Of a DNA stretch of 24,834 nt, positions 1,280 to 24,834 are shown piece after piece. The stretch is taken from NCBI GenBank assembly GCA_021824385.1, contig JAKAKU010000054.1, forward strand, positions 1-24,834, given 5' to 3'. The stretch is from a bacterium. Its GTDB lineage: Bacteria > Patescibacteriota > Microgenomatia > UBA8517. The notes beneath the pieces are model-generated. The model saw nothing but the letters and a program-made list of their open reading frames with translations, was not told the DNA's origin and did no database searches. The stretch's first letter is position 1; each line of letters starts with the position of its first letter. The translations under genes and the position numbers were made by a program.

Positions 1280-1921
1280 TTAGTGCGACTCTAAAAATTC
1301 GATAAAAAGAAGCATCGTGTGAGCACGTTCTTCGAGCTCACCTTTGAGAGATTGTTGCCATAAAACATCGAAATTTTCTGGCAGTTTTTTAAGCGAAGTT
1401 ATATTTTTAAATGCAGTAGAAGATGGGGGAGTTGGCACACCATTTAAAAGGTAAAACCCTTCTACAACTTTCCATAAATTACTTGATACATGAAAGCTTA
1501 AAAAAGCATGATTTTGCGATTCATGTGCAGCGCGTATTTTTGACTTCGCACTCGAAAGCCATTTTCGGGGAAAAGTAATAGGAACATACCCGTCAAAAAT
1601 CTCTTGAGCCAGCACTTTTAATTCAATGAGTAAATCTTCAGGATCGTACACGGCTTTTGCATCCATCCATTGATAAATATTCATGGCATCTTTCTTCATT
1701 TTATTTTTAAAACCAATAAGTGAATTACTTTTAATTTCAACGGTTACACCGTTTATCGTTTTTTCTTTAAATGAGTGCCCCTTTTTAGTAATTACTAAAA
1801 TATCCAAATCTGAGTCTTTGGTGGCATCTCCTCGGGCGACACTTCCAGTTACCATAACTGCCCGATTTTTTTGTTGAAGTTTACTGGCTACCTCGGCGAG
1901 GACTTTTTCATGCTTTGTCAT
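1280..1921 (-). CDS. Minimal nucleotidyltransferase with C-terminal helical domain
   Basis: A 213-residue protein with the nucleotidyltransferase signature GSVARG at 26-31 followed by SDLDIL, giving the metal-binding pair Asp38 and Asp40. The rest is a mostly helical C-terminal half ending in LKKLPENFDVLW, the general architecture of the kanamycin-nucleotidyltransferase/MNT superfamily. It would transfer an NMP to a small molecule or protein; the substrate cannot be read from sequence. It is colinear, almost without gaps, with the 211-residue protein at 17241-17876, sharing for instance MN[IV]YQW[ML]DAKAV, LPTPPS-type and LKKLPENFD blocks, so the two are paralogues. It is divergent from the DipZ-like gene with only 15 bases between starts. 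An extended TGA-TATATT motif 7 bases upstream suggests a leaderless transcript. Confidence 0.85.
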   Translation of the reverse strand: MTKHEKVLAEVASKLQQKNRAVMVTGSVARGDATKDSDLDILVITKKGHSFKEKTINGVTVEIKSNSLIGFKNKMKKDAMNIYQWMDAKAVYDPEDLLIELKVLAQEIFDGYVPITFPRKWLSSAKSKIRAAHESQNHAFLSFHVSSNLWKVVEGFYLLNGVPTPPSSTAFKNITSLKKLPENFDVLWQQSLKGELEERAHTMLLFIEFLESH

Positions 1922-11517: not shown

Positions 11518-12072
11518 ATGGAAGCAGTTAGTAACATAATTCAAAATGTAATCGCATTATCAAAAACTAGAATATTTCTGATTGTTGCGATTGATGGAAT
11601 GCCAGGTGGTGGAAAAAGCACCTTGGCTAAGCATTTCTTGAGAGCTAACCCAGATATTCAGATAATTAAAACAGATAGTTTTTTTGATTTTAATACCAAT
11701 CAAAACGACCTCAAGAGGCTACATCAAGTATTATCAGATATAAGAAGTGGAAAGACTGCTCATTTCAGTATTTATGACTGGAGTTTAAAGAAAAATGTAC
11801 AGGCAAAATCGATTGAGCCCAAGGGAATTATACTAGTGGAAGGAATCTGTTCGCTTGATACTAATCTTGTTCACTTTTACGATTACAAAATATGGGTGGA
11901 TTGTCCTCCAGATATTGGAATGAAGAGAGCTCTCTCTCGTGACAAAGGTGCAAATAGAGAACTGTGGGAACTAAAGTGGATACCAGAGACAATTGATTAC
12001 ATAAACACACAACATCCTGACAAAAAAGCGGATACGGTAATAAGCGCCGCAAATATTCCCGTTTTTATCTGA
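11518..12072 (+). CDS. Uridine-kinase-like P-loop NTPase
   Basis: A 184-residue protein with Walker A G27-M-P-G-G-G-K33-S-T in the first strand-loop-helix, then TDSFFDF (the uridine kinase 'D.FY' acceptor-side region) and LVEGICSLD (Walker B/DxD-like region of the NMP/uridine kinase group). A second strand IWVDCPPDIGMKRALSRD fits the lid. It phosphorylates a small acceptor such as a nucleoside; the exact substrate is not shown. It is shorter than typical uridine kinases and its C-terminus ends just before a palindrome-rich block, so a shortened tail is possible. It directly follows the PRPP synthetase in the same orientation, which makes a nucleotide-salvage role attractive. TAAAAT, overlapping the upstream stop, lies 6 bases before ATG 11518. 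Confidence 0.7.
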   Translation: MEAVSNIIQNVIALSKTRIFLIVAIDGMPGGGKSTLAKHFLRANPDIQIIKTDSFFDFNTNQNDLKRLHQVLSDIRSGKTAHFSIYDWSLKKNVQAKSIEPKGIILVEGICSLDTNLVHFYDYKIWVDCPPDIGMKRALSRDKGANRELWELKWIPETIDYINTQHPDKKADTVISAANIPVFI

Positions 12073-12116
12073 CATTCGACCCCGGACAAATTATTTTGGG
12101 CAGGGTTACATAAAAA

Positions 12117-12720
12117 TGTTCGAACACTGATTCTCACTCAGTTGCGTTAGCTCGTCAATGCGGAGTGGCGGCTGCCCCTGCCCGCCATGCTTCGCATGCG
12201 ATGCAGGCAGGCGCCTCAGCCGCCACATTATTTGCTTGAGGCCGTTGGCCTCATCTTTACGCTTTCGCTTCGCTCAAGCTATTTTTTGCGCGCTACAGCC
12301 GCTTCGCGTCTGGTCTATATTTGCCCCTTACAAGGAAAGTGCGGGGTATTCTTTTTCAAAGAATATCTGCTTACGCAAAGCAAACGGTATAAGCGCCTCA
12401 AGTTGCCTAACGGCAAAGCCAAGCTACGCAAGGCTTGAGGTTCCCTAGCTTCGCTAGGAAAGAGGCTAGTTGGTCGCTTTGCGACCAAACCGTTTGTGCC
12501 TGCGGCTCACTCCCGTGTGGCCCCGCTAAGCGGGGGAGGCACCGCACCGTTTCGGTGTCAAAAGGGAACCGTCCGTCGTCTAAAGTATTTTATACGTCAC
12601 GGTTAAAAGGCCGAAATTTCGACACTTCCACCGTTTAACGGACCGTTCCCACCGTTAACGGTGAAATGAGGCTAATTTGTAACGGACCGTTAACGGTCCG
12701 CCTGCCCGACCTTTGGCGGG
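12117..12720. repeat. Dense array of short hairpins with different stem sequences
   Basis: Perfect stems read directly: GTGGCGGCTG 12165-12174 with CAGCCGCCAC 12217-12226, enclosing CCTGCC/GGCAGG and CATGC-TTC-GCATG; TGAGGCC-GTT-GGCCTCA 12237-12253; TATTCTTT-TTC-AAAGAATA 12347-12365; TGCTT/AAGCA 12368-12382; CCTCAAG 12396-12402 with CTTGAGG 12434-12440, enclosing TTGCC-TAAC-GGCAA 12403-12416 and AAGCC/GGCTT; CCTAGC-TTC-GCTAGG 12444-12458; TTGGTCGC-TTT-GCGACCAA 12470-12488; GTGCCT 12496-12501 with AGGCAC 12537-12542, enclosing CCCCGC-TAA-GCGGGG 12521-12535; CACCG-TTT-CGGTG 12545-12557; CGAAATTTCG 12612-12621. The stems are not copies of each other, but most loops are three bases (TTC, TTT, TAA, GTT). 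It could be a large structured RNA, a recombination or integration hot spot, or remnants of palindromic mobile units. No T-tract terminators follow the hairpins except perhaps the last. Confidence 0.75.
12630..12700. repeat. Cluster of AACGG/CCGTT half-sites forming perfect palindromes
   Basis: ACCGTT/AACGGT words recur: AACGG-A-CCGTT at 12637-12647, the 14-base perfect palindrome CACCGTTAACGGTG at 12650-12663, and the 18-base perfect palindrome CGGACCGTTAACGGTCCG at 12683-12700. More single half-sites lie on either side (12545-12557, near 12598 and 12726-12740). Unlike the upstream hairpins these share one core, so they look like binding sites for a dimeric protein next to the promoter region of the gene at 12759. 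Confidence 0.6.
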
Positions 12721-12728
12721 TTGTTTAC
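12698..12728 (+). terminator. Weak terminator-like hairpin at the end of the array
   Basis: CCGCC (near 12698-12702) can pair with GGCGG (near 12715-12719), or CCCG with CGGG, followed by a short GTTGTTT. No long T-tract. Confidence 0.25.
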
Positions 12729-12753
12729 GGTTAGCGGTTGTTAGTGGTACTCT
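12724..12753 (+). promoter_or_regulatory. Possible promoter of the single-pass membrane protein gene
   Basis: TTTACG (12724-12729), 18-base spacer, TGG-TACTCT (hexamer 12748-12753), ending 5 bases before ATG 12759. The -10 fit is weak; the position matches other starts in the window. Confidence 0.3.
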
Positions 12754-12758
12754 GATAT

Positions 12759-13487
12759 ATGCAACCCGATGATTCAGGTAGCTCAACTCCAAATTCACCA
12801 CACGCTCAAACTGCCAAAAAACAGAAACGAGGCACCCATGGTCAGTTTGTAAAAGGAGATACAAGCTCAATGCCCCAAGCAGAGGTAAAGCCGCCTTCAT
12901 TTGTAAGTAAATTAACCTCAGGGTCTGGAGCTACCGACAACACCCCTCCACTATTGAGTTTTAAAATCACAAATCCCGTTACCTACTTAAAGCTCTGGTG
13001 GAGGAAAATAATGAGTAATGAAGGGATTGATTTCAGATTTAGAATTCATCCAATTACAGCAGTCGTAATTACGCTAATTATCTTAGGTGGAACTTTTAGT
13101 GCAGGCTTTATCGTTTCAGCTCTCAGGAATGTCCCAGTTGTAAGCCAGTTTATCCCAACCCCAACACCTCTTCCTGCTACACCAAATCCAATTCGAGATA
13201 CTGCTTTTACTGGGATCTTACGGAAGGTGGCAACTAACCAATATTATTTACAAACAGGAGATGGTCAAGCAGTTACATTACAGGTCCCAACAAATGTTGA
13301 TTTAGAGAGTTTAATTGGCAAAAGAATCTTTGCCAGTGGAAAATATAATACCCAAACAGGAATACTTCTCGTAGAAAATGCCACATCCCTAGAAGTTCTT
13401 ATCAAAAGCACAAGTGTTCCAACCAGTTCACCAAGTCCAACACCCACACCTGAGCCAACTATTTCTCCTGCAGAAGTGACACAGTAG
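12759..13487 (+). CDS. Single-pass membrane protein with extracytoplasmic beta domain and Pro/Thr tail
   Basis: A 242-residue protein. Residues 1-90 are polar, Ser/Pro/Lys-rich and likely disordered in the cytoplasm, followed by TNPVTYLKLWWRKIMSNEGI and a single membrane helix (about 105-128, ITAVVITLIILGGTFSAGF). Residues about 148-215 form a small beta domain (TGILRKVATNQYYLQTGDG with later strands LIGKRIFASGKYN), compatible with an OB-like fold. The tail is a Pro/Ser/Thr stretch ending the protein. The phrase around the helix seems familiar from Microgenomates-type genomes, from memory only. Function unknown. Its last 29 bases overlap the convergent racemase gene, so the tail must tolerate the opposite frame. 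Confidence 0.65.
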   Translation: MQPDDSGSSTPNSPHAQTAKKQKRGTHGQFVKGDTSSMPQAEVKPPSFVSKLTSGSGATDNTPPLLSFKITNPVTYLKLWWRKIMSNEGIDFRFRIHPITAVVITLIILGGTFSAGFIVSALRNVPVVSQFIPTPTPLPATPNPIRDTAFTGILRKVATNQYYLQTGDGQAVTLQVPTNVDLESLIGKRIFASGKYNTQTGILLVENATSLEVLIKSTSVPTSSPSPTPTPEPTISPAEVTQ

Positions 13488-15553: not shown

Positions 15554-15820
15554 ATGTCAAAAATTGAAAAGAAAATACTTCCTGAATACTTTGAACCAAT
15601 CCTGCAAGGGAAGAAAAAGTATGAGTTACGTTTAGCGGATTGGGAGTGCAAAGAAGGGGATACCCTGCTTCTTAGAGAATATGATTCTGAAAAGCGCGAA
15701 TATACAGGTCGTGAATTAGAGAAAAAAGTGTCGTACGTCGCCAAATTTAAAATTGATGATTTATTTTGGCCGAAAGAAGAAATAGAGAAGTATGGAATTC
15801 AAATTATCTCTTTAGAGTAA
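15554..15820 (+). CDS. DUF3850/ASCH-like small protein
   Basis: An 88-residue protein whose order of motifs matches DUF3850, a branch of the ASCH/PUA-like beta-barrel: LPEYFEPILQGKKKYELR near the start, EGDTLLLREYD in the middle, then YTGRELEKKVSYV. ASCH-fold proteins bind RNA or modified nucleotides; an RNA- or nucleotide-binding role is family knowledge, not shown here. Length equals the bare domain, so nothing else is fused. It is leaderless by its promoter. Its final 9 bases overlap the end of the convergent DUF84-Nudix gene. Confidence 0.8.
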   Translation: MSKIEKKILPEYFEPILQGKKKYELRLADWECKEGDTLLLREYDSEKREYTGRELEKKVSYVAKFKIDDLFWPKEEIEKYGIQIISLE

Positions 15821-16750
15821 CTCTTTTAATATTCTCTCAGCTATTTCATACTGGTCAGGGAAATTTAGATACTCTTTCAAATCACTTCTTTTTACCCATC
15901 TAACCTCTCGTATTTCCTCAGGTTGTATTTTAATTTCTTTTTTGTCACCTGTGAACCTAACTAAAAAGTACATTTCTTCTTGTCCTCTGTAAGTTTTGCC
16001 TTCCTTCTTCTGCCTTCTTGCAATTACGAACGGTGGCCAGTCATATCTTGTAACCTCTTTGCTTTTCTTGAGTATCTCAAAATTGTCTGTTCCAAGTTCC
16101 TCTTTAAATTCTCTTAAAAGTGCCTGTTCAGGAGTTTCACCTTCTTCTATCCCGCCTCCGGGGTAATTCCAATCATTTTCTTTATAAATTACGAGTTGAT
16201 CAAGTAAAAACTGCCCCTCATTATCCATCACAAGTCCGCAAACTTTTTTCCTGTATCCCAAATTTCCATGAAGTTTTAAGTATTCTGCATATGAATTCTG
16301 AACTGCCTGAGTAAAAGGGGAGAGCCTTGTAATTAGGTTTTCATCTATTTCATTGTTCTTGGCATATTCACGAATTACATCTCCAAACCATGCTCCATCT
16401 TTAACTTTTTTAGAAACTTCCTCTGGTAAATGTAGTTCTTCCCCTTCACCAATAAATTCCTCACCATCTTTTGTAATTAAACAGGAGTAGGTAACTAAAT
16501 GATATCCGTCATCGTAGTCATGAAGCCCTCCCTCCAGTCCAAAGTAAAAAGCGGCATCAGGTTTCAGTTCTCTTGCGTGTTTTGCCCTGTTTACTGCTCC
16601 CTGTTTTGTTTCCTCTTTGTCTAGTGGTTGGGTAGAAATCTTAGAATCAGCTTTTGTGCCTTCCACATCTACTTCCAAATGAAGTTCTTTGAGAGCACTC
16701 TCTAAAATTTTCAATTTATCTTTGCTTTCTGAACCAAGTATTATTTTCAT
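15812..16750 (-). CDS. Fusion of a DUF84 (YjjX-like) inosine/xanthosine triphosphatase and a Nudix hydrolase
   Basis: A 312-residue protein in two halves. Residues 1-162 are DUF84/YjjX-like: MKIILGSESKDKLKI, QPLDKEETKQGAVNRAKHA (41-59) and FGLEGG (70-75), the segments that bind the deaminated purine triphosphate. Residues 165-312 are a Nudix domain with box G199-x5-E205-x7-R213-E-x-x-E217-E218-x-G220 complete. Both halves remove unwanted nucleoside phosphates, so the fusion is a plausible two-step sanitiser (NTP to NMP and further) or acts on one shared substrate. It is the last gene of a four-gene operon. Its start overlaps the previous stop by ATGA. Fusions of these two domains are not ones I can recall as common, which makes the joint activity interesting. 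Confidence 0.85.
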   Translation of the reverse strand: MKIILGSESKDKLKILESALKELHLEVDVEGTKADSKISTQPLDKEETKQGAVNRAKHARELKPDAAFYFGLEGGLHDYDDGYHLVTYSCLITKDGEEFIGEGEELHLPEEVSKKVKDGAWFGDVIREYAKNNEIDENLITRLSPFTQAVQNSYAEYLKLHGNLGYRKKVCGLVMDNEGQFLLDQLVIYKENDWNYPGGGIEEGETPEQALLREFKEELGTDNFEILKKSKEVTRYDWPPFVIARRQKKEGKTYRGQEEMYFLVRFTGDKKEIKIQPEEIREVRWVKRSDLKEYLNFPDQYEIAERILKELL

Positions 16751-17244
16751 TTTTTATTGTATAGCTCAATTGCATCCTTAAACATTGCGTCTCCTGTCAC
16801 TTGCCATTGAACATATTCAGTTACTTTTTCCATTGGAACAAATTTGCGTACCCAAGTATTACCATTCGCAGGGTCAGGTGTCTGAGGAAGTAATTCTTCA
16901 ACTTCACATATACATCTAATTTGGTACCCTTTTCGTTCAGGGTTGCTGAGTGGGTAGGTAAGTTGGGCTCCAAGAAGTTTTATGTTTTTTACTTTTACAT
17001 CTACTTCTTCAATCATTTCTCTCTTTAGGGTTTCTTCTATTGTTTCATCTCCTTCAGGGTGACCACCTGCAATTTGCCAAGGACCTTTCTCGCTTGATTT
17101 ACAGATAAGTATTTCGTTTTTATCATTGAAACAAATTCCATAAACCTGATGATATGGTTGGAATTCCTTCATTGAATTCCCTTTTATCCATATATGCATA
17201 AATTCAGTACCATTCCAAACCATTTTGTTTTGTGGATATTTCAT
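16747..17244 (-). CDS. Nudix hydrolase
   Basis: A 165-residue single-domain Nudix protein. Box: G61-x5-E67-x7-R75-E76-M-I-E79-E80, with the late glycine changed (V81-D82-V), which does not remove metal ligands. It hydrolyses a nucleoside-diphosphate-linked compound; the substrate is unknown. The ATG at 17244 is supported by the 4-base ATGA overlap with the upstream nucleotidyltransferase stop; a downstream Met at residue 25 is the alternative. The stop overlaps the DUF84-Nudix start in the same way. It is not a near copy of the Nudix half of its neighbour. Confidence 0.85.
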   Translation of the reverse strand: MKYPQNKMVWNGTEFMHIWIKGNSMKEFQPYHQVYGICFNDKNEILICKSSEKGPWQIAGGHPEGDETIEETLKREMIEEVDVKVKNIKLLGAQLTYPLSNPERKGYQIRCICEVEELLPQTPDPANGNTWVRKFVPMEKVTEYVQWQVTGDAMFKDAIELYNKK

Positions 17245-17876
17245 TTAATTAAATATTTTATTAATTTCATTGTAGCCTCGGCTCTTGAATCTAAACTTCC
17301 CGTTAAAATATCTTTCCAAATCTCATCAAAGTTCTCTGGTAATTTTTTAAGTGTTTTTATTCTCCTAAAAGCAGTTGTTGAAGGTGGAGTGGGAAGAGAG
17401 TTAATGATGTAGAGGCTTTCAACAATTTTCCAAAGGATATTTGAAATGTTAAATCCCAAAAGTAAATCATTTTTAGATTGTTTTGCAGATTCTGTTTTGG
17501 CAAGTGAACTTTCAAGCCATTTTTTAGGTAAAACAGGGGGAGTGTAACCGATCAAAATGTCCTCTGCATATTTCTGAAGTTCAGAAAGTAAATTGTCTGG
17601 GTCGTGAACTGCTTTAGCGTCAAGCCATTGGTAAACATTCATTGGCTCACCTTTCATTTTCTGTTTAAAACCTTCAAGGGTATTAGTTTTAACCTCAACC
17701 AGTCTGCCCTCTATCTCTCTTTCCTCAAAAGAATGTTCAGTTTGAGAGACCACCAATAAATCAATGTCAGAGTTTGGGGTATCTTCATTTCTGGCCACAC
17801 TGCCTGTCACAAAAACCGCCAAATTGTCTTCTTCTAAGTCGTAGCTAATTTCTTTCAGAACACCCTCTGTTTTCAT
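17241..17876 (-). CDS. Minimal nucleotidyltransferase, paralogue of the protein at 1280-1921
   Basis: A 211-residue protein with GSVARN at 25-30 and SDIDLL giving Asp37 and Asp39. By eye roughly half the residues match the 213-residue protein near the left end, colinear over the whole length, including NVYQWLDAKAVHDPDNLL and LPTPPSTTAFRRI and TLKKLPENFD. Both proteins keep the metal-binding aspartates. It probably transfers a nucleotide to an unknown acceptor, or removes one in reverse. It lies in an operon between a CYTH protein and a Nudix hydrolase, each junction an ATGA overlap, so the four proteins are likely made in fixed ratio. The paralogue near the left edge stands outside such an operon. 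Confidence 0.85.
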   Translation of the reverse strand: MKTEGVLKEISYDLEEDNLAVFVTGSVARNEDTPNSDIDLLVVSQTEHSFEEREIEGRLVEVKTNTLEGFKQKMKGEPMNVYQWLDAKAVHDPDNLLSELQKYAEDILIGYTPPVLPKKWLESSLAKTESAKQSKNDLLLGFNISNILWKIVESLYIINSLPTPPSTTAFRRIKTLKKLPENFDEIWKDILTGSLDSRAEATMKLIKYLIK

Positions 17877-18448
17877 ATAAATGGGTTTTTGCCACCAAAC
17901 AATATCTCTGGAGTGTGGTTGTTAATTCTATCTTCAGTTATTCCATACTTTTCGGAGTAGAGTTCGTCAACTGCACAAAACTTTGCTTTTGAATAATCCA
18001 AACCAAGTTTTTCAGAAGCATTTTTAACGTCATTCTCGCTTTTTCCTTCTATCTCAATAAATGGTTCCAAAAACGGCCACTCGTCAATTGTAACTTCTGT
18101 ATTATCAAGCTCCCAAAGTTCTCTTTTTGTTTCCTGAAACGCTTTTTTCTCGCAACCAATTGTAGTTAAAAGAGTAACGGCTTCACTAAAGTCATCAACC
18201 TTAAGCTGAATCTCCTTTTGGTCTTCTATCTTTGTGCCGTCAATAATTTTAAGGCTCATTGTAATCTTATCTCCTTCATCCCGAACTCTAAGCCATCCTC
18301 CTTTTATTTCATGTCCTTTGGGAAGATTAAACACAGCTCTCTTTTGCATAAATTCAGGCCTAATCAGCTTCGCGTTAGCTTTTTTAAGAAGTTCGCGTGC
18401 TTTACTCTTTTCTATATTAGTAAATGTAGCTTCAAATTCTGTATACAT
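17873..18448 (-). CDS. CYTH-domain protein (adenylyl cyclase class IV / triphosphatase fold)
   Basis: A 191-residue protein with the CYTH tunnel signature. ExE lies at the N-terminus (Glu4-Phe-Glu6), followed by WLRVRDEGD with Arg54 and Arg56, SLK (Lys67) on an inner strand, EIQLKV (around Glu79), ETKRELWEL (Lys108/Arg109), TIDEWPFLEPFIEIEG with Asp122/Glu123 and Glu132/Glu134. These are the charged residues that bind a triphosphate and metal in class IV cyclases, thiamine triphosphatases and inorganic triphosphatases. Which reaction it performs cannot be told. It is the first gene of the four-gene operon. TAAAAT lies 6 bases before the ATG, with a 20-base inverted repeat directly upstream. 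Confidence 0.85.
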   Translation of the reverse strand: MYTEFEATFTNIEKSKARELLKKANAKLIRPEFMQKRAVFNLPKGHEIKGGWLRVRDEGDKITMSLKIIDGTKIEDQKEIQLKVDDFSEAVTLLTTIGCEKKAFQETKRELWELDNTEVTIDEWPFLEPFIEIEGKSENDVKNASEKLGLDYSKAKFCAVDELYSEKYGITEDRINNHTPEILFGGKNPFI

Positions 18449-18577: not shown

Positions 18578-19825
18578 ATGACAGATTTAATTATTAACAT
18601 TCCAGTTCACAACGAAGAAGAGAGATTGCCTGAGTTATTTGACAGCATTCAACGTGCTCAAAAAAATTATCATATAGAACTTGTACTTGTAAACCATTTA
18701 TCTACTGACAACTCTATTGGGATAATAAACAGCATTCGGTCAAAGTTTTACAAAGTTAATGTGATTAACGAAATGTTTCCTTTAGCTTGTGGAGGTAAAC
18801 CTAGAAATACTGGGTTTGGGGTTGCAATAAAGTTAGCAGATAAATATTTAAGTGAAACTGGTAAGCGTATCCCTATTGCAACTTTAGATTGTGATACTCA
18901 AGTCTCAGATAATTTTATTGAGGATGCAATGAAAAAATTAGCATCTGGGTATGATATTGTTACATTTCCAGAACGTTACAATCAAAATATTTTATTTAAT
19001 TGGATAAAAATGCAGGATGTTTCGTTCCAAGAGAATGCAACAAAGGCATTGATTGGTTTAAATTGGTTCAGATACGAGTTGCTGTGGGGGTTAATTCTCA
19101 AAGGGATAAAGGAAACAAGAGGACCAGGAGGTTATGTTATGTCCTCTAACACTTTAAACATGCTTGGACATCTCCAACCATTGGATAAAAATGGAAAACC
19201 TGTAACTGGAGAAAATAATAGGCTTGGAATATTAGCTAACAGAATGGACCTAAAAGTATATTGCTCACCTTTTTATTCGACTGTTCATCCTCGTAGAGAA
19301 ATTTCATCATACTCAAGAAAAAATATTCAAGAAAAAGGATATTCGCTAAACGAATTCGGTTCAGAGGTTTTTAAGTTAGCGAGACCCGTAAATGATTATC
19401 CTAAACTTAACGCTAAAGAATGGGATGAAAGTTTGGTTAAAGGAGTATCAAGAGCTTTAAAAATGTCTGCAACTAGAATAGCCTGTTATAAAAAGTTTGA
19501 TGAATTTAGTGAATTATTTCCTAATATAAGTTGGAAAAAATTAGTTACAGCCTGTAAAAAATATATCGACTCAAATAATTTTGACGAAGACGAACTTTCT
19601 GTTACTGGCAGCTACATCTATAGAAACATGATAGACTTTGCCACTGAATCAATTGGCAAGGACAATTTCTCAAATTTAATTTTAGAAATTATCTCTTATA
19701 TCCCGGATAATGAATACTTAAAATCTTGGGCTACGGATAATTCCGCTACCATTCAACCTACTAATTGCATTATAAAAGACTTGCAAATTAAATACATTAA
19801 CGAATATGAGAACAGAAAAAGCTGA
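18578..19825 (+). CDS. GT-A fold glycosyltransferase (family 2-like)
   Basis: I use ATG 18578 (415 residues); the in-frame TTG at 18536 would add 14 unlikely residues. The family 2 start is plain: LIINIPVHNEEERLPELFDS, then ELVLVNHLSTDN. The metal/sugar-nucleotide site is D104-C-D106 in TLDCDTQVSDNF. The remainder (about 150-415) is an extended region with no membrane helices I can see and no family I know. It would transfer a sugar from a nucleotide donor in the cytoplasm. It heads the cluster and its last 20 bases overlap the start of the isoprenoid-synthase-like gene, so the two are probably translated together, which hints that its acceptor may be made by, or related to, that enzyme. Confidence 0.8.
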   Translation: MTDLIINIPVHNEEERLPELFDSIQRAQKNYHIELVLVNHLSTDNSIGIINSIRSKFYKVNVINEMFPLACGGKPRNTGFGVAIKLADKYLSETGKRIPIATLDCDTQVSDNFIEDAMKKLASGYDIVTFPERYNQNILFNWIKMQDVSFQENATKALIGLNWFRYELLWGLILKGIKETRGPGGYVMSSNTLNMLGHLQPLDKNGKPVTGENNRLGILANRMDLKVYCSPFYSTVHPRREISSYSRKNIQEKGYSLNEFGSEVFKLARPVNDYPKLNAKEWDESLVKGVSRALKMSATRIACYKKFDEFSELFPNISWKKLVTACKKYIDSNNFDEDELSVTGSYIYRNMIDFATESIGKDNFSNLILEIISYIPDNEYLKSWATDNSATIQPTNCIIKDLQIKYINEYENRKS

Positions 19826-20816
19826 AACAATAGAACCACCATTGAACCCAGAAGAGCTTATACTTGTTGAGTATAAAAACGCAGGAATTGATATGTTGTC
19901 TCGGGAATTAATCTCTTCACTAGACGAGCAGGAGTCTAAGCCGATAGCTTACACCCATGAACTGTGGTATTCAAAAACAAAAACCATGCTTCCAAGCATT
20001 ATTTCATCGGAAATTGGGATTGACCCAAAAGAAATAACTATGCTTTCTACATCCATTGACGTTTTGTGGACACTTTCAGTTATGGTTGACGATATTTATG
20101 ATCAGGATACTCATAGGAGATCTAAACCTGCGGCGTGGACAGTGTTCGGAGCAGAACAAACCTACAAATCTGCTCAGGCAGGGTTTGAGGACGTTTTGCA
20201 AATCTTAGCAAAGCATTATGGTGTGAAATCAGCACAATTGTGCAAATCGAGCGTAGAAAGAGGATTGCAATCGATAAAGGATCATAAATTCATTGAACTG
20301 TCTTGTGGTTTTAATCAGCTTGTTGAAAACTATGGTAATCGTGATGCTTTCTTTGCGAGATTTCCTTTCGAAGCCCTTTCTATTCAATATCCAGAATCAG
20401 CCAAACAGCTTGAAGACTCAGCTATTGCACTCGAAAAGTATTATTTTGCCGGTCAGATAGGTAACGATCTGGATGATATGTTTAAAGAAGTAAATGGAAA
20501 TTGCAGGTACAGTGATGTAAAGTCAGGATTAGTAACAGTTCCAACCAGGATTTTGTGGGAAAAAATGACTGAATCAGACAAGGAATCTTTTCTTGAAATT
20601 TTTGATACGAAAGAACTGACTGAAATACAAAATGTAATTCTTAACCAGTTAAAATACAAATATAGCGTTTTTGATAGGTCATTTGAAAAAATTGTTGAAA
20701 GTTACACTGAATCTATCAAAATTCTTCAGCCGATATTAAGAGAGCCTACACTGGAAATATTCAATGGACTTTGTAAATCACAATTGCAAAAATTTTCTAA
20801 ATATAAAGCTCTTTAG
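19806..20816 (+). CDS. Isoprenyl diphosphate synthase / class I terpene synthase-like protein
   Basis: A 336-residue helical protein. The first aspartate-rich motif is D95-D-I-Y-D99, followed as in trans-isoprenyl diphosphate synthases by R104-R105-x-x-P108 and WTVFGAEQT. The second metal site is QIGN220-D-L-D-D224-x3-E228, followed by D237-VKSG-LVTVP, the 'DL..GK.TLP' element of that family. The synthase second motif is normally DDxxD; here it is NDxxD, and the same bases also read N-x3-D-x3-E, close to the NSE triad of terpene cyclases with Asp for Ser. The IPP-binding GGKR region is degraded (SKTKTMLP at about 56-63). It may therefore condense or cyclise a prenyl diphosphate rather than elongate chains. 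Start ATG overlaps the glycosyltransferase by 20 bases; its stop overlaps the convergent CrtC-like stop by 4. Confidence 0.75.
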   Translation: MRTEKAETIEPPLNPEELILVEYKNAGIDMLSRELISSLDEQESKPIAYTHELWYSKTKTMLPSIISSEIGIDPKEITMLSTSIDVLWTLSVMVDDIYDQDTHRRSKPAAWTVFGAEQTYKSAQAGFEDVLQILAKHYGVKSAQLCKSSVERGLQSIKDHKFIELSCGFNQLVENYGNRDAFFARFPFEALSIQYPESAKQLEDSAIALEKYYFAGQIGNDLDDMFKEVNGNCRYSDVKSGLVTVPTRILWEKMTESDKESFLEIFDTKELTEIQNVILNQLKYKYSVFDRSFEKIVESYTESIKILQPILREPTLEIFNGLCKSQLQKFSKYKAL

Positions 20817-21727
20817 AACCAAATCTCGCTTAGTCCTTTATTGGTTTCAACAATATCTCCTGTTTGTAGTGTACCTTCACTGAGAAATCTAATATATGCA
20901 GATTCGACTTTTCCATTGCCATCTATTGTCAAAATATTATCGGTGAGAATTACGCTCGGTCGGACTTGCAATAAAAAATTGTCAGAGGCTAAAGTTAATG
21001 AATTTGGGTAAAAATAACCAAGCCTTTCATGCATAGTTGAACCTTCACTCCCGATATGAAAACTATCATATGACCCAGCGAGATGTCCGTCTTTATAAGT
21101 CAATAAATGTCGTTCTTTATCGTTGAAGCCATAGACACATCCAAGTCTATCCCCAAAGAACCTACCAAATTTCCAACCTTTCAATAAGGTAGAAAGAACC
21201 TCTCTATTATTATCAGTATCTTTAATATCAAATCCATTGAACCAATTATGGTCGTGGTATCCTTCGCCATTGAAGGGCATAACTTTTTCACCTGAAATTA
21301 TTGCCCCAGTAACTTTAGCCCTTGGGACCTCAACTTTCCAAAACATTCTTTCATCAGTTAAATGCATATTTTGGCTTGGCAGAAGTGGATCAAACAACAG
21401 ATCAATCTTAGCCCTATCTGAATTACTTTCTAGATGATAAGCACCGTTTTCTATAGTGACTTTGTGGTTGGATAATTTAAGATATTGTGAGCTAGAACTA
21501 ACGAACTTGTCGTCACTGACTTCATGATACGCAACAATCGGCTTATTGGGTTCATTTACAAACGCTGAAACTGTTGGATTATTTTGTCCTAGATGAGAGT
21601 AAAAGATAACAACAAGTCCAATTCCATCTTGGGAGGTCGCATCAAAATACCACCATTCCGCTTGAGAAGTTGAATGTTCAAACTCGGGCCCTGAAATATT
21701 GTGTAGTCTTTCATTGGAACTTGACAT
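20813..21727 (-). CDS. CrtC/AttH-like lipocalin-fold protein
   Basis: A 304-residue beta-rich protein without a signal peptide. Two landmarks of the CrtC (carotenoid 1,2-hydratase)/AttH family are present: E24-W-W-Y-F-D29 in the N-terminal domain and G156-Y-H-D-H-N-W162 at the start of the C-terminal part. Members bind long hydrophobic substrates in two lipocalin-like barrels; CrtC hydrates acyclic carotenoid ends, tocopherol cyclase closes a ring, and fungal relatives promote Diels-Alder closures. A role in modifying the isoprenoid made by the neighbour is an inference. It lies on the opposite strand, tail-to-tail with the synthase (stops overlapping) and head-to-head with the kinase. TACAAT is 8 bases before the ATG. 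Confidence 0.75.
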   Translation of the reverse strand: MSSSNERLHNISGPEFEHSTSQAEWWYFDATSQDGIGLVVIFYSHLGQNNPTVSAFVNEPNKPIVAYHEVSDDKFVSSSSQYLKLSNHKVTIENGAYHLESNSDRAKIDLLFDPLLPSQNMHLTDERMFWKVEVPRAKVTGAIISGEKVMPFNGEGYHDHNWFNGFDIKDTDNNREVLSTLLKGWKFGRFFGDRLGCVYGFNDKERHLLTYKDGHLAGSYDSFHIGSEGSTMHERLGYFYPNSLTLASDNFLLQVRPSVILTDNILTIDGNGKVESAYIRFLSEGTLQTGDIVETNKGLSEIWF

Positions 21728-21735
21728 AGGAACAT

Positions 21736-21741
21736 ATTGTA
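21736..21741 (-). promoter_or_regulatory. Putative -10 of the CrtC-like gene
   Basis: TACAAT on the minus strand, 8 bases before the ATG at 21727. It lies within the 49-base divergent intergenic gap. Confidence 0.4.
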
Positions 21742-21751
21742 CATCTTGGTG

Positions 21752-21757
21752 TATAAT
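21752..21757 (+). promoter_or_regulatory. Putative -10 of the APH-type kinase gene
   Basis: Perfect TATAAT, 19 bases before ATG 21777, leaving a leader of roughly 13 bases without a Shine-Dalgarno. TTGACA at 21721-21726 is too far (25-base spacer) to pair with it. Confidence 0.4.
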
Positions 21758-21776
21758 CGACCAACAATTTCAAATT

Positions 21777-22949
21777 ATGAGTCTAGTTGAACTAAAAAAT
21801 GATTCTATTTTATCGGATATTAATTCTCAAATTGTTAAGAATTGGTTTGCCGACTATCTCGCCACGGGTGAGTTTGATCAAACCAAATTTGAACTTGAAG
21901 AGATAAACAGAGACGAAGAAGATAAACTAATACCCACAAGAGCCTTTTATTTTAAAGCGACAATTAATGATGTCGAATATTTTGTAAAGACTTTTCACCA
22001 AAGACAAAATTTCGTAGAATCAGAACTTATTAACAATAATGTTTTTGATAGATGTGAAGGAGTTAGAATACCCACTTTGCACCAGGTATTAAAGTCAGAC
22101 TCATTCAGCCTGCTTGTGTATGACTATATTAAAGGGCAAACTTTACAGAGCTACTTATCAGATACTGAGGCGACAATGGAGAATAGCAAAGATGATATTA
22201 TGTTGACCGTCTTAAATCAGTCTATTGCTCTCTCTTTATGTGCAGAAAAAGGCAATCCAAAAACAATAAACCTAGCTGGCCCAGCAAAAACACCCTTTTC
22301 TACACACATCCTAAATACTGACTTTTATAAGAAGTCTATGGAGGTTTATGAACCCTTCGCTATGTTAAAGCCAACTATTGAGGATTCATTCCCTGGATAT
22401 ATATTAGATAGACATCCTAGAAACATGATTGTCTCGAATAGTGATGTCTTCCAGACTGATTTTGAAATAGTTGGGCTTTCTTCTCCAATATTTGAACTGA
22501 CTAAGATGTTGCGTGGAGGAGTTACTAAAACATATAAACCTGCAGCTCTCTCAAGCTTAGACAATGAAGAATTAATTCAGAAAAGTTTTTTAGAACTAAA
22601 TGCATTTACTGCCGAAGAGGAAAATGCTTATGTAGATTATTATTTTTTTAATAGATATCCTGAGTATGGATCTAAAGAAAGAGACTTATTTCATTATCTC
22701 TATACAGTAGCGGCCGCGCATTCACATTTAAATTTAATGAATAGAGCACTTGTGGCGAAAAAAGCAGACCCTGATCTTAATATCGCGTCATCATCCGCCA
22801 TGTATCATCTTTTGGGTTACTTAAGTCTTCAAGCTAATATTTATAACGGTTCTGAGTTGTTAAATAAAGTGGTAAGCAGAGATCAAATCCATGAGCTTAA
22901 TTTGGTAACCAAAGAGATTGCAATCAATTTTAACTTAGCATATGAGTAG
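21777..22949 (+). CDS. APH/choline-kinase-type small-molecule kinase
   Basis: Read from ATG 21777 (390 residues); the longer frame start at 21699 runs through the divergent gene's start and the promoter. The protein-kinase-like fold is seen as K71 in VEYFVKTFHQ (ATP lysine), LLVYDYIKGQTLQSYL as the hinge, D211-R-H-P-R-N216 as the catalytic D-x4-N, and D228-F-E as the metal-binding DxE. This is the aminoglycoside/choline/homoserine kinase layout, so the acceptor is likely a small hydroxylated molecule. Being next to an isoprenoid-synthase-like gene, phosphorylation of a prenyl alcohol or of a sugar are both open. Its end overlaps the GT4 start by 8 bases. Confidence 0.75.
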   Translation: MSLVELKNDSILSDINSQIVKNWFADYLATGEFDQTKFELEEINRDEEDKLIPTRAFYFKATINDVEYFVKTFHQRQNFVESELINNNVFDRCEGVRIPTLHQVLKSDSFSLLVYDYIKGQTLQSYLSDTEATMENSKDDIMLTVLNQSIALSLCAEKGNPKTINLAGPAKTPFSTHILNTDFYKKSMEVYEPFAMLKPTIEDSFPGYILDRHPRNMIVSNSDVFQTDFEIVGLSSPIFELTKMLRGGVTKTYKPAALSSLDNEELIQKSFLELNAFTAEEENAYVDYYFFNRYPEYGSKERDLFHYLYTVAAAHSHLNLMNRALVAKKADPDLNIASSSAMYHLLGYLSLQANIYNGSELLNKVVSRDQIHELNLVTKEIAINFNLAYE

Positions 22950-24249
22950 ACCTGAATTTGAGCCTAACGAAGTGAAGGAAAGAGAATTATTTGGGCATAA
23001 TATCATGATATATTCATCTTCGCTCCCAGGTACTATAGGGGGAATTCAAACTTGCAACCAGGCTCTCATTGAGAAAGTAGTCTCGCAAGGTGCTTCAGTT
23101 TGTTGGGTGTATCCTAGGACCGAAAAATCCGATTTTGAAAATATAGAATGGGTAAATAACCAAAACAGTAAGGTTCAATTCTTGCCACTTGAACCAGAAA
23201 ATCAAACAAAGGAAGGGCTGAATAGGGCTTCAGATATCGCAATCAAAGAGTGGCAAGATCATCTTTGCCTACATAACGATACTGAAATACTAATAAACAT
23301 GCCAAGTAATTTTGGTGAACAGATAGCCAATAGTATTCCTCAAAACTTAATACCCAAAACAACTTTATGGTTTCATGGAATGATAGATCTTAGTGAACAA
23401 GCGTTATCTAGCTTCGATACAAAACTATATGAAAAATATAAGCAAAGCGAAGACACTAGAGAAAAATGGAAAAAGTCGTTTCGAACACTTAGTGACAAAG
23501 GGTTTAAGTTTGTTTTGGTATCTGAACGTGTAAGGGAGTCATTCCTTAGAAATGAGGTGCTTAAACCTGATGACTACGTAGAAGTTTTGCCACCACCATC
23601 TGACATGTGTCACGAATGTCAGGGGAGCCAACGTGAGAAAATTACAGATATAAGAAATGGATTTGATATGGTGTCCACAACAGTTATGAGGATTGAACCG
23701 AGAAAAGGGATAGAGAATTTATTCCATTTAGGTATTGAACTTGAGAGTCAGCTTACTGACAATAGAAAAGTCAAGTTTATAATAGTGGGCGCCGATCAAA
23801 ACTCAAGTTACTCTGATTTGTTAAAGACTAATGCATATACGCTCAATCAACGTCTTGGTGCTGTTCATTTTGAGATCGTAGAAGCAAAAACTGGACAAGC
23901 TCTATGCGACTATTACAATGCTTCTGATTTTTTTACAATGCCATCGATTACTGAATCATTTGGTTTGGTAGTGGTAGAGGCTGCATCTCATGGGCTTCCT
24001 GTTATATCCTGGGGGGAGCAGGATACTCTAAAGAGTGTTAATAGACTTAATGAATTGGGTTACTCTATCCCCTGTGAGCTAGACAATATTCATTTGCACG
24101 ACAAAGAAGGTGCAAAATTTATTATTGACTTAATGAATGATCCTTTATATAAAACCACAATTGGTGAGAAGGCAAAAGAGATTGTCCTAAAAACTCAAAA
24201 CAAAGCAGAAATTCTCAATAAATTAATATCAATAATTATAAATAAATGA
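22942..24249 (+). CDS. GT4-type glycosyltransferase (GT-B fold)
   Basis: A 435-residue protein. The N-terminal domain starts IMIYSSSLPGTIGGIQTCNQ, with the Gly-rich acceptor-side loop of GT4 enzymes. The donor-side domain has VMRIEPRKGIENLF and PSITESFGLVVVEAASHGLP with the E-x7-E pair Glu338/Glu346 that holds the nucleotide sugar. It acts in the cytoplasm on an unknown acceptor. A CHECQG cysteine pair in the middle is unusual for the family and may bind zinc. The first 8 bases overlap the kinase; the stop overlaps the next start (ATGA), so three genes form a tight operon. Confidence 0.85.
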   Translation: MSRPEFEPNEVKERELFGHNIMIYSSSLPGTIGGIQTCNQALIEKVVSQGASVCWVYPRTEKSDFENIEWVNNQNSKVQFLPLEPENQTKEGLNRASDIAIKEWQDHLCLHNDTEILINMPSNFGEQIANSIPQNLIPKTTLWFHGMIDLSEQALSSFDTKLYEKYKQSEDTREKWKKSFRTLSDKGFKFVLVSERVRESFLRNEVLKPDDYVEVLPPPSDMCHECQGSQREKITDIRNGFDMVSTTVMRIEPRKGIENLFHLGIELESQLTDNRKVKFIIVGADQNSSYSDLLKTNAYTLNQRLGAVHFEIVEAKTGQALCDYYNASDFFTMPSITESFGLVVVEAASHGLPVISWGEQDTLKSVNRLNELGYSIPCELDNIHLHDKEGAKFIIDLMNDPLYKTTIGEKAKEIVLKTQNKAEILNKLISIIINK

Positions 24250-24834
24250 TAGACAACTTTGAAAAATATAACAAACTTTGGAAGTTATCACGGAACGTGA
24301 AACCTTTGATAATTCTGATAGGCGGTTATTGTGGTACTGGAAAGTCTACATTTGCAAGCCAAATAAAAGATAGACTAGATTTTATGAATATCATTCCAAC
24401 AGGCGTAATTCGGTCAATTTACCAGAGTATATATTCAATAAATGAAGCTCCATATTTACATGGTCATACGTACAAATTATTTGATCTCGAAATGTATTCC
24501 AAGCTTTCTTTTGAAAAAGCAGTTATTGATTCGTATACAGACCAAGTTAATATTGTTGAACCAGGTATCGAGAAGTTAATTGAATTTGCACACAGTGAGG
24601 GTCAACAATACATTATAGAAGGTAATCACATTATGCCCTCTCTTGCGATGAAATACATTAATAAATCAAATGTAATCTCTTTGTTTTTTAAAACCTCAAA
24701 CAATAGCACTCTTACCTTAAATATGACAGGTACAACTCATAAAAGGATATTGTCAGAAAAAGAGATTCTAGCTGCAATAAAACTTCAAGAACACACTACT
24801 GATGAGGTCAATAAAAATAACCTTCCTATATTTG
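24246..24834 (+). CDS. 2-phosphoglycerate-kinase-like P-loop kinase, C-terminus outside window
   Basis: The ATG at 24246 overlaps the GT4 stop (ATGA). I translated 196 codons to the right edge. Residues 20-35 give LIILIGGYCGTGKST, with Walker A G27-x4-G32-K33-S. Then come TGVIRSIYQS (the nucleotide/acceptor region), LHGHTYKLFD, and IIEGNHIMPS, which matches the IIEGVHLxP Walker B-type segment of archaeal 2-phosphoglycerate kinase. Real 2-phosphoglycerate kinase activity makes cyclic 2,3-diphosphoglycerate precursor, but many relatives phosphorylate other small molecules, so the acceptor is open. It is the second kinase in this cluster. Truncated by the window edge, not by mutation. Confidence 0.7.
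   Translation, partial: MIDNFEKYNKLWKLSRNVKPLIILIGGYCGTGKSTFASQIKDRLDFMNIIPTGVIRSIYQSIYSINEAPYLHGHTYKLFDLEMYSKLSFEKAVIDSYTDQVNIVEPGIEKLIEFAHSEGQQYIIEGNHIMPSLAMKYINKSNVISLFFKTSNNSTLTLNMTGTTHKRILSEKEILAAIKLQEHTTDEVNKNNLPIF

What the first reader, a model, noticed from the sequence alone, without database searches (positions are those of the whole stretch)
18578..24834. Compact glycosyltransferase - isoprenoid synthase-like - CrtC-like - two-kinase cluster
Seen: GT-A enzyme, terpene/isoprenyl synthase-like protein, CrtC/AttH-like protein, APH-type kinase, GT4 enzyme and a P-loop kinase lie together with start/stop overlaps (20, 4, 8 and 4 bases). Known: CrtC acts on isoprenoids and two kinase steps can build a prenyl diphosphate from an alcohol. 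Inferred: synthesis or salvage of a glycosylated isoprenoid. Host-dependent Patescibacteria are often short of isoprenoid precursor pathways, so a salvage-plus-tailoring route would be new. The cluster continues beyond the right edge.
Basis: partly seen in the sequence, partly recalled or inferred. Interest (0 to 1): 0.78.

Follow-up and report, generated by a model that had tools for sequence, protein, structure and literature searches.

The report
Patescibacterial terpene-synthase-like glycosylation gene cluster
This stretch of a tiny, probably host-dependent bacterium's genome carries an isoprenoid-type enzyme that appears to have lost the site for building longer chains and sits beside sugar-attaching enzymes, so it probably helps make a sugar-decorated terpene-like molecule; the pairing recurs in scattered relatives.

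The parts
18578..19825 (+). GT-A (GT2-type) glycosyltransferase, 415 aa, partner of the synthase (20-base overlap)
   Evidence: Pfam Glycos_transf_2 49.7 bits, cut-off 23.3. Best BLAST match among 421 frames is the GT2 next to the Collierbacteria synthase (9e-6), but a profile of the recurring GT2 subfamily scores it 33.7 bits, below three generic GT2s
19806..20816 (+). IDS-fold, terpene-synthase-like enzyme, 336 aa: DDxxD at residues 95-99, NDxxD at 220-224, IPP site largely changed
   Evidence: Pfam 44.0 bits; AlphaFold pLDDT 89.3; fold matches; tree; site counts
20813..21727 (-). CrtC/AttH-like (lipocalin-like) protein, 304 aa, opposite strand; label weak
   Evidence: Sub-threshold Pfam DA_N 20.2 bits; 26% over 55% of the query to 'lipocalin-like domain-containing protein' at 4e-4; EWWYF and YHDH-x-W shared with the G023 relative; its CrtC reading is from recall
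21777..22949 (+). APH-like kinase (a longer TTG frame starts at 21699)
   Evidence: No Pfam match, no PDB match; one relative, G205, 8e-15, sharing D-R-x-P-R-N and D-F-E stretches; the kinase reading of these is from recall
22942..24249 (+). GT4 glycosyltransferase, 435 aa
   Evidence: Glycos_transf_1 56.1 bits; full-length match to the GT4 near the G707 synthase, 23% over 431 columns, 8e-26, shared CHxCQ
24246..24834 (+). P-loop kinase, 196 aa seen, cut by the contig end
   Evidence: NCBIfam 2-phosphoglycerate kinase 101.5 bits, below cut-off 343
17873..18448 (-). CYTH-domain protein upstream of the GT-A gene; a CYTH gene also lies near the G619 synthase; membership in the system open
   Evidence: CYTH 42.1 bits, cut-off 23.2; L044 4917-5501 CYTH 42.8 bits

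Best explanation
The core is a terpene-synthase-like enzyme derived from an isoprenyl diphosphate synthase. It binds metal and an allylic prenyl diphosphate through DDxxD, the first Arg after it, an Arg in place of the usual Lys, and NDxxD, and ionises it. Having lost most of the IPP site it no longer extends the chain; the cation is quenched by water, cyclised, or deprotonated. The paired GT-A enzyme, and here the GT4, then attach sugars to the terpenoid; in relatives methyltransferases and a NUDIX hydrolase complete the set. Shown: fold, clade, residue pattern, recurrence of a synthase-glycosyltransferase core in relatives. Inferred: loss of chain extension, terpene formation, glycosylation of its product by these enzymes, and supply of the prenyl diphosphate by a second canonical IDS or by the host.
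For: IDS fold. One branch with 100/100 support splits 8 synthases from 13 canonical IDSs. Site counts, 8 synthases vs 13 canonical: DDxxD 8/8 and 13/13; first Arg 8/8 and 13/13; IPP-site Lys 0/8 vs 13/13; IPP-site Arg replaced by Lys 8/8; Trp 8/8 where canonical have H/E/Q; second Arg 1/8 vs 13/13; ND for DD 8/8 vs 0/13. Precedent: in Melampsora, changing the Arg of this motif (R81P) turned a GGPP synthase into a nerolidol-forming enzyme without GGPP synthase activity, and 7 of 10 listed IDS-like terpene synthases have an ND second motif (PMC7484799, passages); termite GGPPS-like terpene synthases keep the first Asp motif and one other motif (PMC13143122, passages). GT2 adjacent in 5 of 7 other intact loci, methyltransferase in 5, NUDIX in 5. 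Methyltransferase profile is nearest 3bus and a D-glucose O-methyltransferase. A separate canonical IDS exists in 6 of 8 genomes.
Against: No activity data. Arg to Lys is conservative, and the window protein itself keeps the second Arg. PMC7484799 says that the ND change alone does not make a terpene synthase; the usual NSE triad is not complete here (Asp in place of Ser; Glu at the last place in the window protein but not in the others). The window GT-A is not shown to belong to the recurring GT2 subfamily. The window has no methyltransferase of that kind beside the synthase. No canonical IDS was found in G000 (68% complete) or in G001, so the source of the substrate there is unknown. Sequence alone does not exclude a prenyltransferase with another acceptor.
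Confidence: 0.5

Rival explanations
1. A prenyltransferase with a non-IPP acceptor: it ionises an allylic diphosphate and hands the prenyl group to a sugar, glycerate, nucleoside or aromatic acceptor; the glycosyltransferases and kinases make or extend that acceptor.
For: Same site pattern. Sugar- and glycerate-type neighbours: GT-A, GT4 and a 2-phosphoglycerate-kinase-like protein, PIG-L next to the G476 synthase.
Against: No acceptor gene is common to the loci; a new acceptor pocket is not evident from sequence; it explains the methyltransferases no better.
Confidence: 0.2
2. An ordinary chain-building IDS with an unusual IPP site, making a lipid carrier or quinone tail; the glycosyltransferases belong to a surface-glycan locus.
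For: Its best fold and sequence matches are chain-building IDSs; UPPS is present in 8 of 8 genomes; Arg to Lys in the IPP motif keeps the charge, and the window protein keeps both Args after DDxxD; it is the only PF00348 match in G000.
Against: 6 of 8 genomes have a separate canonical IDS; four IPP-site positions differ consistently from 13 canonical IDSs; the gene is rare and patchy, unlike a housekeeping synthase.
Confidence: 0.17
3. One reading: the APH-like and P-loop kinases phosphorylate a prenyl alcohol twice to feed the synthase, and the CrtC-like protein hydrates the product.
For: IspH absent from 8 of 8 genomes and no GHMP kinase in 8 of 11, so in many of them C5 units or prenyl groups must come from elsewhere; the kinases lie within 4 kb of the synthase.
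Against: Kinases are nearest to 2-phosphoglycerate kinase and to a gene in a sugar-type locus. I saw neither kinase beside the synthase in the 7 other intact loci. The CrtC-like gene is on the other strand, with a relative in only 2 other genomes of 373, one of them a 45-aa frame.
Confidence: 0.06

Closest known systems
trans-isoprenyl diphosphate synthases (PF00348; e.g. 1wy0 GGPP synthase, 3mzv decaprenyl diphosphate synthase)
   Different: IPP-site Lys, Arg, H/E/Q and second Arg changed; Arg for Lys in the KT motif; Gly for Phe before Gln; NDxxD second motif
IDS-like terpene synthases of Melampsora rust fungi and of termites (PMC7484799, PMC13143122; passages)
   Same: IDS fold family, altered IPP-site residues, mostly ND second motif in the fungal ones
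   Different: Those arose within eukaryotic GGPP synthases; here a separate patescibacterial group. Fungal ones have NDxxS, here NDxxD; no activity has been tested here
Classical bacterial class I terpene synthases (NDxxSxxxE; recall and PMC7484799 passage)
   Same: DDxxD, an Asn-Asp second motif, an Arg about 40 residues before it
   Different: Sequence and best fold matches are to IDSs; the second motif has Asp in place of Ser
RebM / D-glucose O-methyltransferase type enzymes (3bus, 6uv6; the name RebM is recalled)
   Same: Top PDB matches of the methyltransferase that recurs near this synthase in 5 relatives
   Different: Family resemblance only (E about 1e-27); N-methyltransferases follow closely; no such gene near the synthase in the window

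Membership tests
trans-isoprenyl diphosphate synthase (fold family, PF00348) | Pfam score over cut-off and IDS fold | tested here: met
trans-isoprenyl diphosphate synthase (chain-building enzyme) | Two Asp-rich motifs DDxxD | tested here: not met
   First present; the second is NDxxD in 8 of 8, DD in 13 of 13 canonical
trans-isoprenyl diphosphate synthase (chain-building enzyme) | IPP-binding residues (GKxxR, second Arg after DDxxD) | tested here: not met
   Lys 0 of 8, Arg 0 of 8 (Lys instead), second Arg 1 of 8, that one being the window protein; canonical 13 of 13 each
trans-isoprenyl diphosphate synthase (chain-building enzyme) | Condensation of an allylic diphosphate with IPP | not testable with these tools
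   Needs an enzyme assay
IDS-like terpene synthase | IDS fold and descent with altered IPP site | tested here: met
IDS-like terpene synthase | Second motif of the NSE/NSD type (NDxxSxxxD/E) | tested here: inconclusive
   ND present in 8 of 8; Asp at the Ser place in 8 of 8. PMC7484799 finds the triad not absolutely required (passages)
IDS-like terpene synthase | Terpene formed without IPP | not testable with these tools
   Needs an enzyme assay
Recurring synthase-linked GT2 subfamily (window GT-A) | Scores above generic GT2s with a profile of the 5 members | tested here: not met
   33.7 bits against 78.5, 45.9 and 36.7 for three generic GT2s; pairwise BLAST and phmmer rank the subfamily first, so a distant link stays possible
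2-phosphoglycerate kinase (P-loop kinase) | NCBIfam equivalog cut-off | tested here: not met
   101.5 bits, cut-off 343, protein cut by the contig end
Carotenoid 1,2-hydratase CrtC / AttH-like | Family profile or fold match | tested here: inconclusive
   No CrtC Pfam match; DA_N below cut-off; model pLDDT 33, unusable; no PDB match for a two-sequence profile

The most novel reading that the evidence does not exclude
Some Patescibacteria, which mostly lack a C5 isoprenoid pathway of their own, carry a deep, previously undescribed group of bacterial terpene synthases evolved from prenyl-chain synthases, and use it with dedicated glycosyltransferases and sugar methyltransferases to turn prenyl diphosphates, built from host-derived units in most of them, into a modular family of glycosylated terpenoids, perhaps signals or surface lipids acting on the host.
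Probability: 0.35. Interest if true: 0.8.

Novelty: new variant of a known kind. Interest (0 to 1): 0.58.

Why it matters
Patescibacteria are described as poor in biosynthesis, and in the genomes searched here IspH is absent (8 of 8). A dedicated, recurring terpenoid-glycoside locus would point to a small molecule made from host-derived material, and would add a bacterial case to the conversion of chain-building synthases into terpene synthases known from fungi and insects. The synthase is short and gives a confident model, so the idea can be tested directly in E. coli.

Tried and rejected
Register of the IPP motif: I first read the Arg of GKxxR as changed to Pro, as in fungal R81P (the row labels for 57 and 60 still carry that register). 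The columns and the spacing to DDxxD (34-37 in the 8 synthases, 36-53 in the canonical) showed that this Arg aligns with Lys59, so the claim was dropped.

GT2 link: a profile of the five synthase-linked GT2s does not report the window GT-A at default filters, and with filters off scores it below three generic GT2s. hhalign gives 96.6% probability, which shows GT-A homology only.

CrtC-like fold: the single-sequence model failed, pLDDT 33; a profile of two against PDB gave nothing. APH-like: no PDB match; the profile of two gave only kinase matches at E 0.045 and worse. P-loop kinase against PDB: a designed protein at 2.9e-6 over 23 residues and a uridine kinase at 0.024, not used.

Defence: PADLOC has no match in five of the six cluster genes and one 18.9-bit stretch in the APH-like protein; the GT4 passes Pfam GT4-conflict (34.5 bits, cut-off 26) but scores higher with general GT4 models. 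Rfam and tRNA scans of the window found nothing. Promoter-like (33 against 26.2, sd 5.1) and terminator-like sites (3 against 3.7) are near shuffles.

Spread beyond Patescibacteria: phage records 1 match, 24.9% at 2e-4 in an unannotated Enterococcus phage record, not followed; plasmids 1 match over a quarter of the query; viral contigs 0; genome contigs 0, then 4 loci, all with patescibacterial titles. These searches are limited; absence elsewhere is not shown.

Rows left out: of 15 loci tried as canonical IDS rows, 13 gave a row (L036 and L004 gave no frame that passed my filter). Seven of the 13 came in as weak matches of the class search for the synthase itself, six from the PF00348 search. 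Four rows have long branches (G023, G263, G377 canonical; G476 synthase). The decayed G337 copy was left out of alignments and tree. A third PF00348 match in G370 was not followed. The structure job used 5 of the 8 synthases, those from sources its rule names.
Full report
WHAT IS THERE. The window is a whole 24834-base contig (C54) of a genome of 926,600 bases in 148 contigs, 68% complete. It is in the same family as G092, whose contig has the same length (802,554) as CP055308.1, titled Candidatus Woesebacteria bacterium isolate Ch104a. So the host is a patescibacterium; that its class is Microgenomatia is my recall of these names. The arrangement is GT-A and synthase (+), CrtC-like (-) tail to tail, then APH-like, GT4 and P-loop kinase (+), the last cut by the contig end.

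RELATIVES. Of 56 relatives searched, 3 matched at E 1e-3, own genome included, one of them weakly. Of 373 class genomes 12 matched, 5 of them at E below 1e-20: G000, G054, G092, G370 and G337, the last with two stops inside. Of 379 phylum genomes 5 matched a four-sequence profile at E 1e-15: G000, G092, G476, G619, G707. An eight-sequence profile found 2 of 5 genomes in the family of G707 and 1 of 85 in the class of G619, in each case only those already known. A pattern scan of the GTDB species genomes with the window protein alone confirmed none; with an alignment it gave 4 loci, all with patescibacterial titles, among them a Collierbacteria one (L028). The gene looks rare and patchy, hence accessory. 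The same-genus genome G001, 97% complete, has no match.

CLADE AND SITES. In a maximum-likelihood tree one branch (100/100; 100% of 200 bootstrap trees) separates the 8 intact synthases from 13 canonical IDSs of class genomes (the root is unknown and four rows are long). Counts over the 8 synthases against the 13: the three Asps of DDxxD 8/8 and 13/13; first Arg after it 8/8 and 13/13; second Arg 1/8 (the window's own) and 13/13; Lys of GKxxR 0/8 (T 5, H 2, S 1) and 13/13; Arg of GKxxR 0/8 (Lys in 8) and 13/13; the place seven before DDxxD Trp in 8/8, in canonical H 7, E 4, Q 2; Lys of the KT pair replaced by Arg 8/8, kept 13/13; Phe before Gln replaced by Gly 8/8, kept 13/13; first Asp of the second motif replaced by Asn 8/8, kept 13/13; Lys of the late GK pair 0/8, kept in 11 of 13 with 2 gaps. 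Which residues bind IPP and which the allylic diphosphate is recalled from farnesyl diphosphate synthase structures. PMC7484799 (passages) supports the Arg of this motif: R81P abolished GGPP synthase activity of a rust-fungus enzyme and gave nerolidol; 7 of the 10 IDS-like terpene synthases in its table have an ND second motif. It also says that the motif change alone (D250N/N254S) gave no terpene synthase. PMC13143122 (passages) reports that termite GGPPS-like proteins conserve only the first Asp motif and one further motif. The pattern here fits an enzyme that still ionises an allylic diphosphate but has largely lost the IPP partner. Against it: Arg to Lys is conservative, and the window protein keeps both Args after DDxxD.

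NEIGHBOURHOOD. The 7 other intact loci are Woesebacteria L016, KatS3mg091 L017, Shapirobacteria L005, Collierbacteria L028, G619 L044, G707 L045 and G476 L046. A GT2 of one subfamily adjoins the synthase in 5 (L016, L017, L005, L028 downstream; L044 tail to tail). A 283-291-aa methyltransferase lies close by in 5 (L016, L005, L028, L044, L045). A NUDIX gene lies close by in 5 (L016, L017, L005, L028, and a more distant one in L045). A 216-217-aa methyltransferase is in 3 (L016, L017, L044). A GT4 that matches the window GT4 over its full length (23% over 431 columns, 8e-26) is in 1 (L045). A PIG-L protein is in 1 (L046), and an unknown 356-395-aa protein in 2 (L045, L046). The decayed ninth copy (G337, L018) keeps pieces of the synthase, the GT2 and both methyltransferases. 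The window shares with these the synthase, a GT-A gene in the partner position (order reversed) and the GT4; its GT-A is not shown to belong to the same subfamily, and the exact six-gene order occurs in none. The methyltransferase profile is closest to 3bus and a D-glucose O-methyltransferase, in keeping with methylation of a sugar, though other methyltransferases score near.

OTHER WINDOW GENES. CrtC-like: 3 of 373 class genomes match, own included; the better other one (G023, 2.1e-6) lies beside a P-loop kinase and a NUDIX gene, the third is a 45-aa frame. APH-like: 2 of 373, own included; the other (G205) lies in a run of radical-SAM, sugar-aminotransferase-like, PIG-L-like and SDR genes. 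P-loop kinase: nearest 2-phosphoglycerate kinase models, below their cut-off. These point to sugar or glycerate chemistry rather than prenyl phosphorylation; none of it is a test of function.

ISOPRENOID SUPPLY. IspH: 0 of 8 genomes (controls 10 of 14). UPPS: 8 of 8. A canonical IDS: 6 of 8 (G023, G054, G092, G370, G337, G377), none in G001 and none in G000 besides the window gene. GHMP kinases: 3 of 11 genomes, as adjacent pairs about 3 kb from UPPS in G370 and G337 (mevalonate-like by position, recall), and one in G000 beside a phosphatase-like and a sugar-nucleotide-dehydrogenase-like gene, so more likely a sugar kinase (recall). HMG-CoA reductase and the other MEP or mevalonate genes were not searched. 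PMC9166423 (passages) states that in freshwater CPR classes other than Gracilibacteria only C10-C20 isoprenoid synthesis seems possible; PMC10221324 (passage) notes a near-complete mevalonate pathway in Peregrinibacteria. G000 is incomplete, so its absences count little.

VERDICT. A recurring core (IDS-derived synthase plus glycosyltransferase) in a modular patescibacterial locus, of which the window is a divergent version. Terpene-glycoside synthesis is the best reading (0.5), a prenyltransferase with another acceptor 0.2, an ordinary IDS 0.17, prenyl-alcohol salvage by the two kinases 0.06. I found no description of it in the listings (15 of 37 listed), which cover only the open-access papers held; apart from the passages of the four papers cited I read listings and abstract starts only.

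Noticed in passing
window 1280-1921 (-) and 17241-17876 (-): Two nucleotidyltransferase-like proteins, 50% identical over 208 aa, at opposite ends of the contig; the second has NTP_transf_2 38.2 bits and weak matches to PADLOC candidate models.
   Followed up: no
window 15812-16750 (-): One frame joins a DUF84/NTPase_I-T domain (residues 6-138) to a NUDIX domain (166-303); a second NUDIX gene follows at 16747-17244.
   Followed up: partly
window 12001-13000: Local GC rise to 0.50 against 0.34-0.46 elsewhere, with only short overlapping frames around 12158-12448.
   Followed up: no
L060 5272-6546 (-), L047 4427-5716 (-) and 7797-9095 (-): UPPS genes in the window's family have open frames of 426-450 aa (G000, G001, G092, G023) against 235-249 aa in G054, G337, G370 and G377, so they carry a C-terminal extension of about 190 aa; G092 has two copies.
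   Followed up: partly
L044 4917-5501 (+) and window 17873-18448 (-): CYTH-domain genes lie near the synthase both in the window and in the distant G619 locus.
   Followed up: partly
L018 6497-9805 (-): In G337 the whole synthase-GT2-methyltransferase set is present but broken into short frames, a decaying copy.
   Followed up: partly
L059 4249-10445 (+): G205 locus with radical SAM/SPASM, PseC-like aminotransferase, BshB-like PIG-L, SDR and the APH-like relative: an amino-sugar-type set in another patescibacterium.
   Followed up: partly
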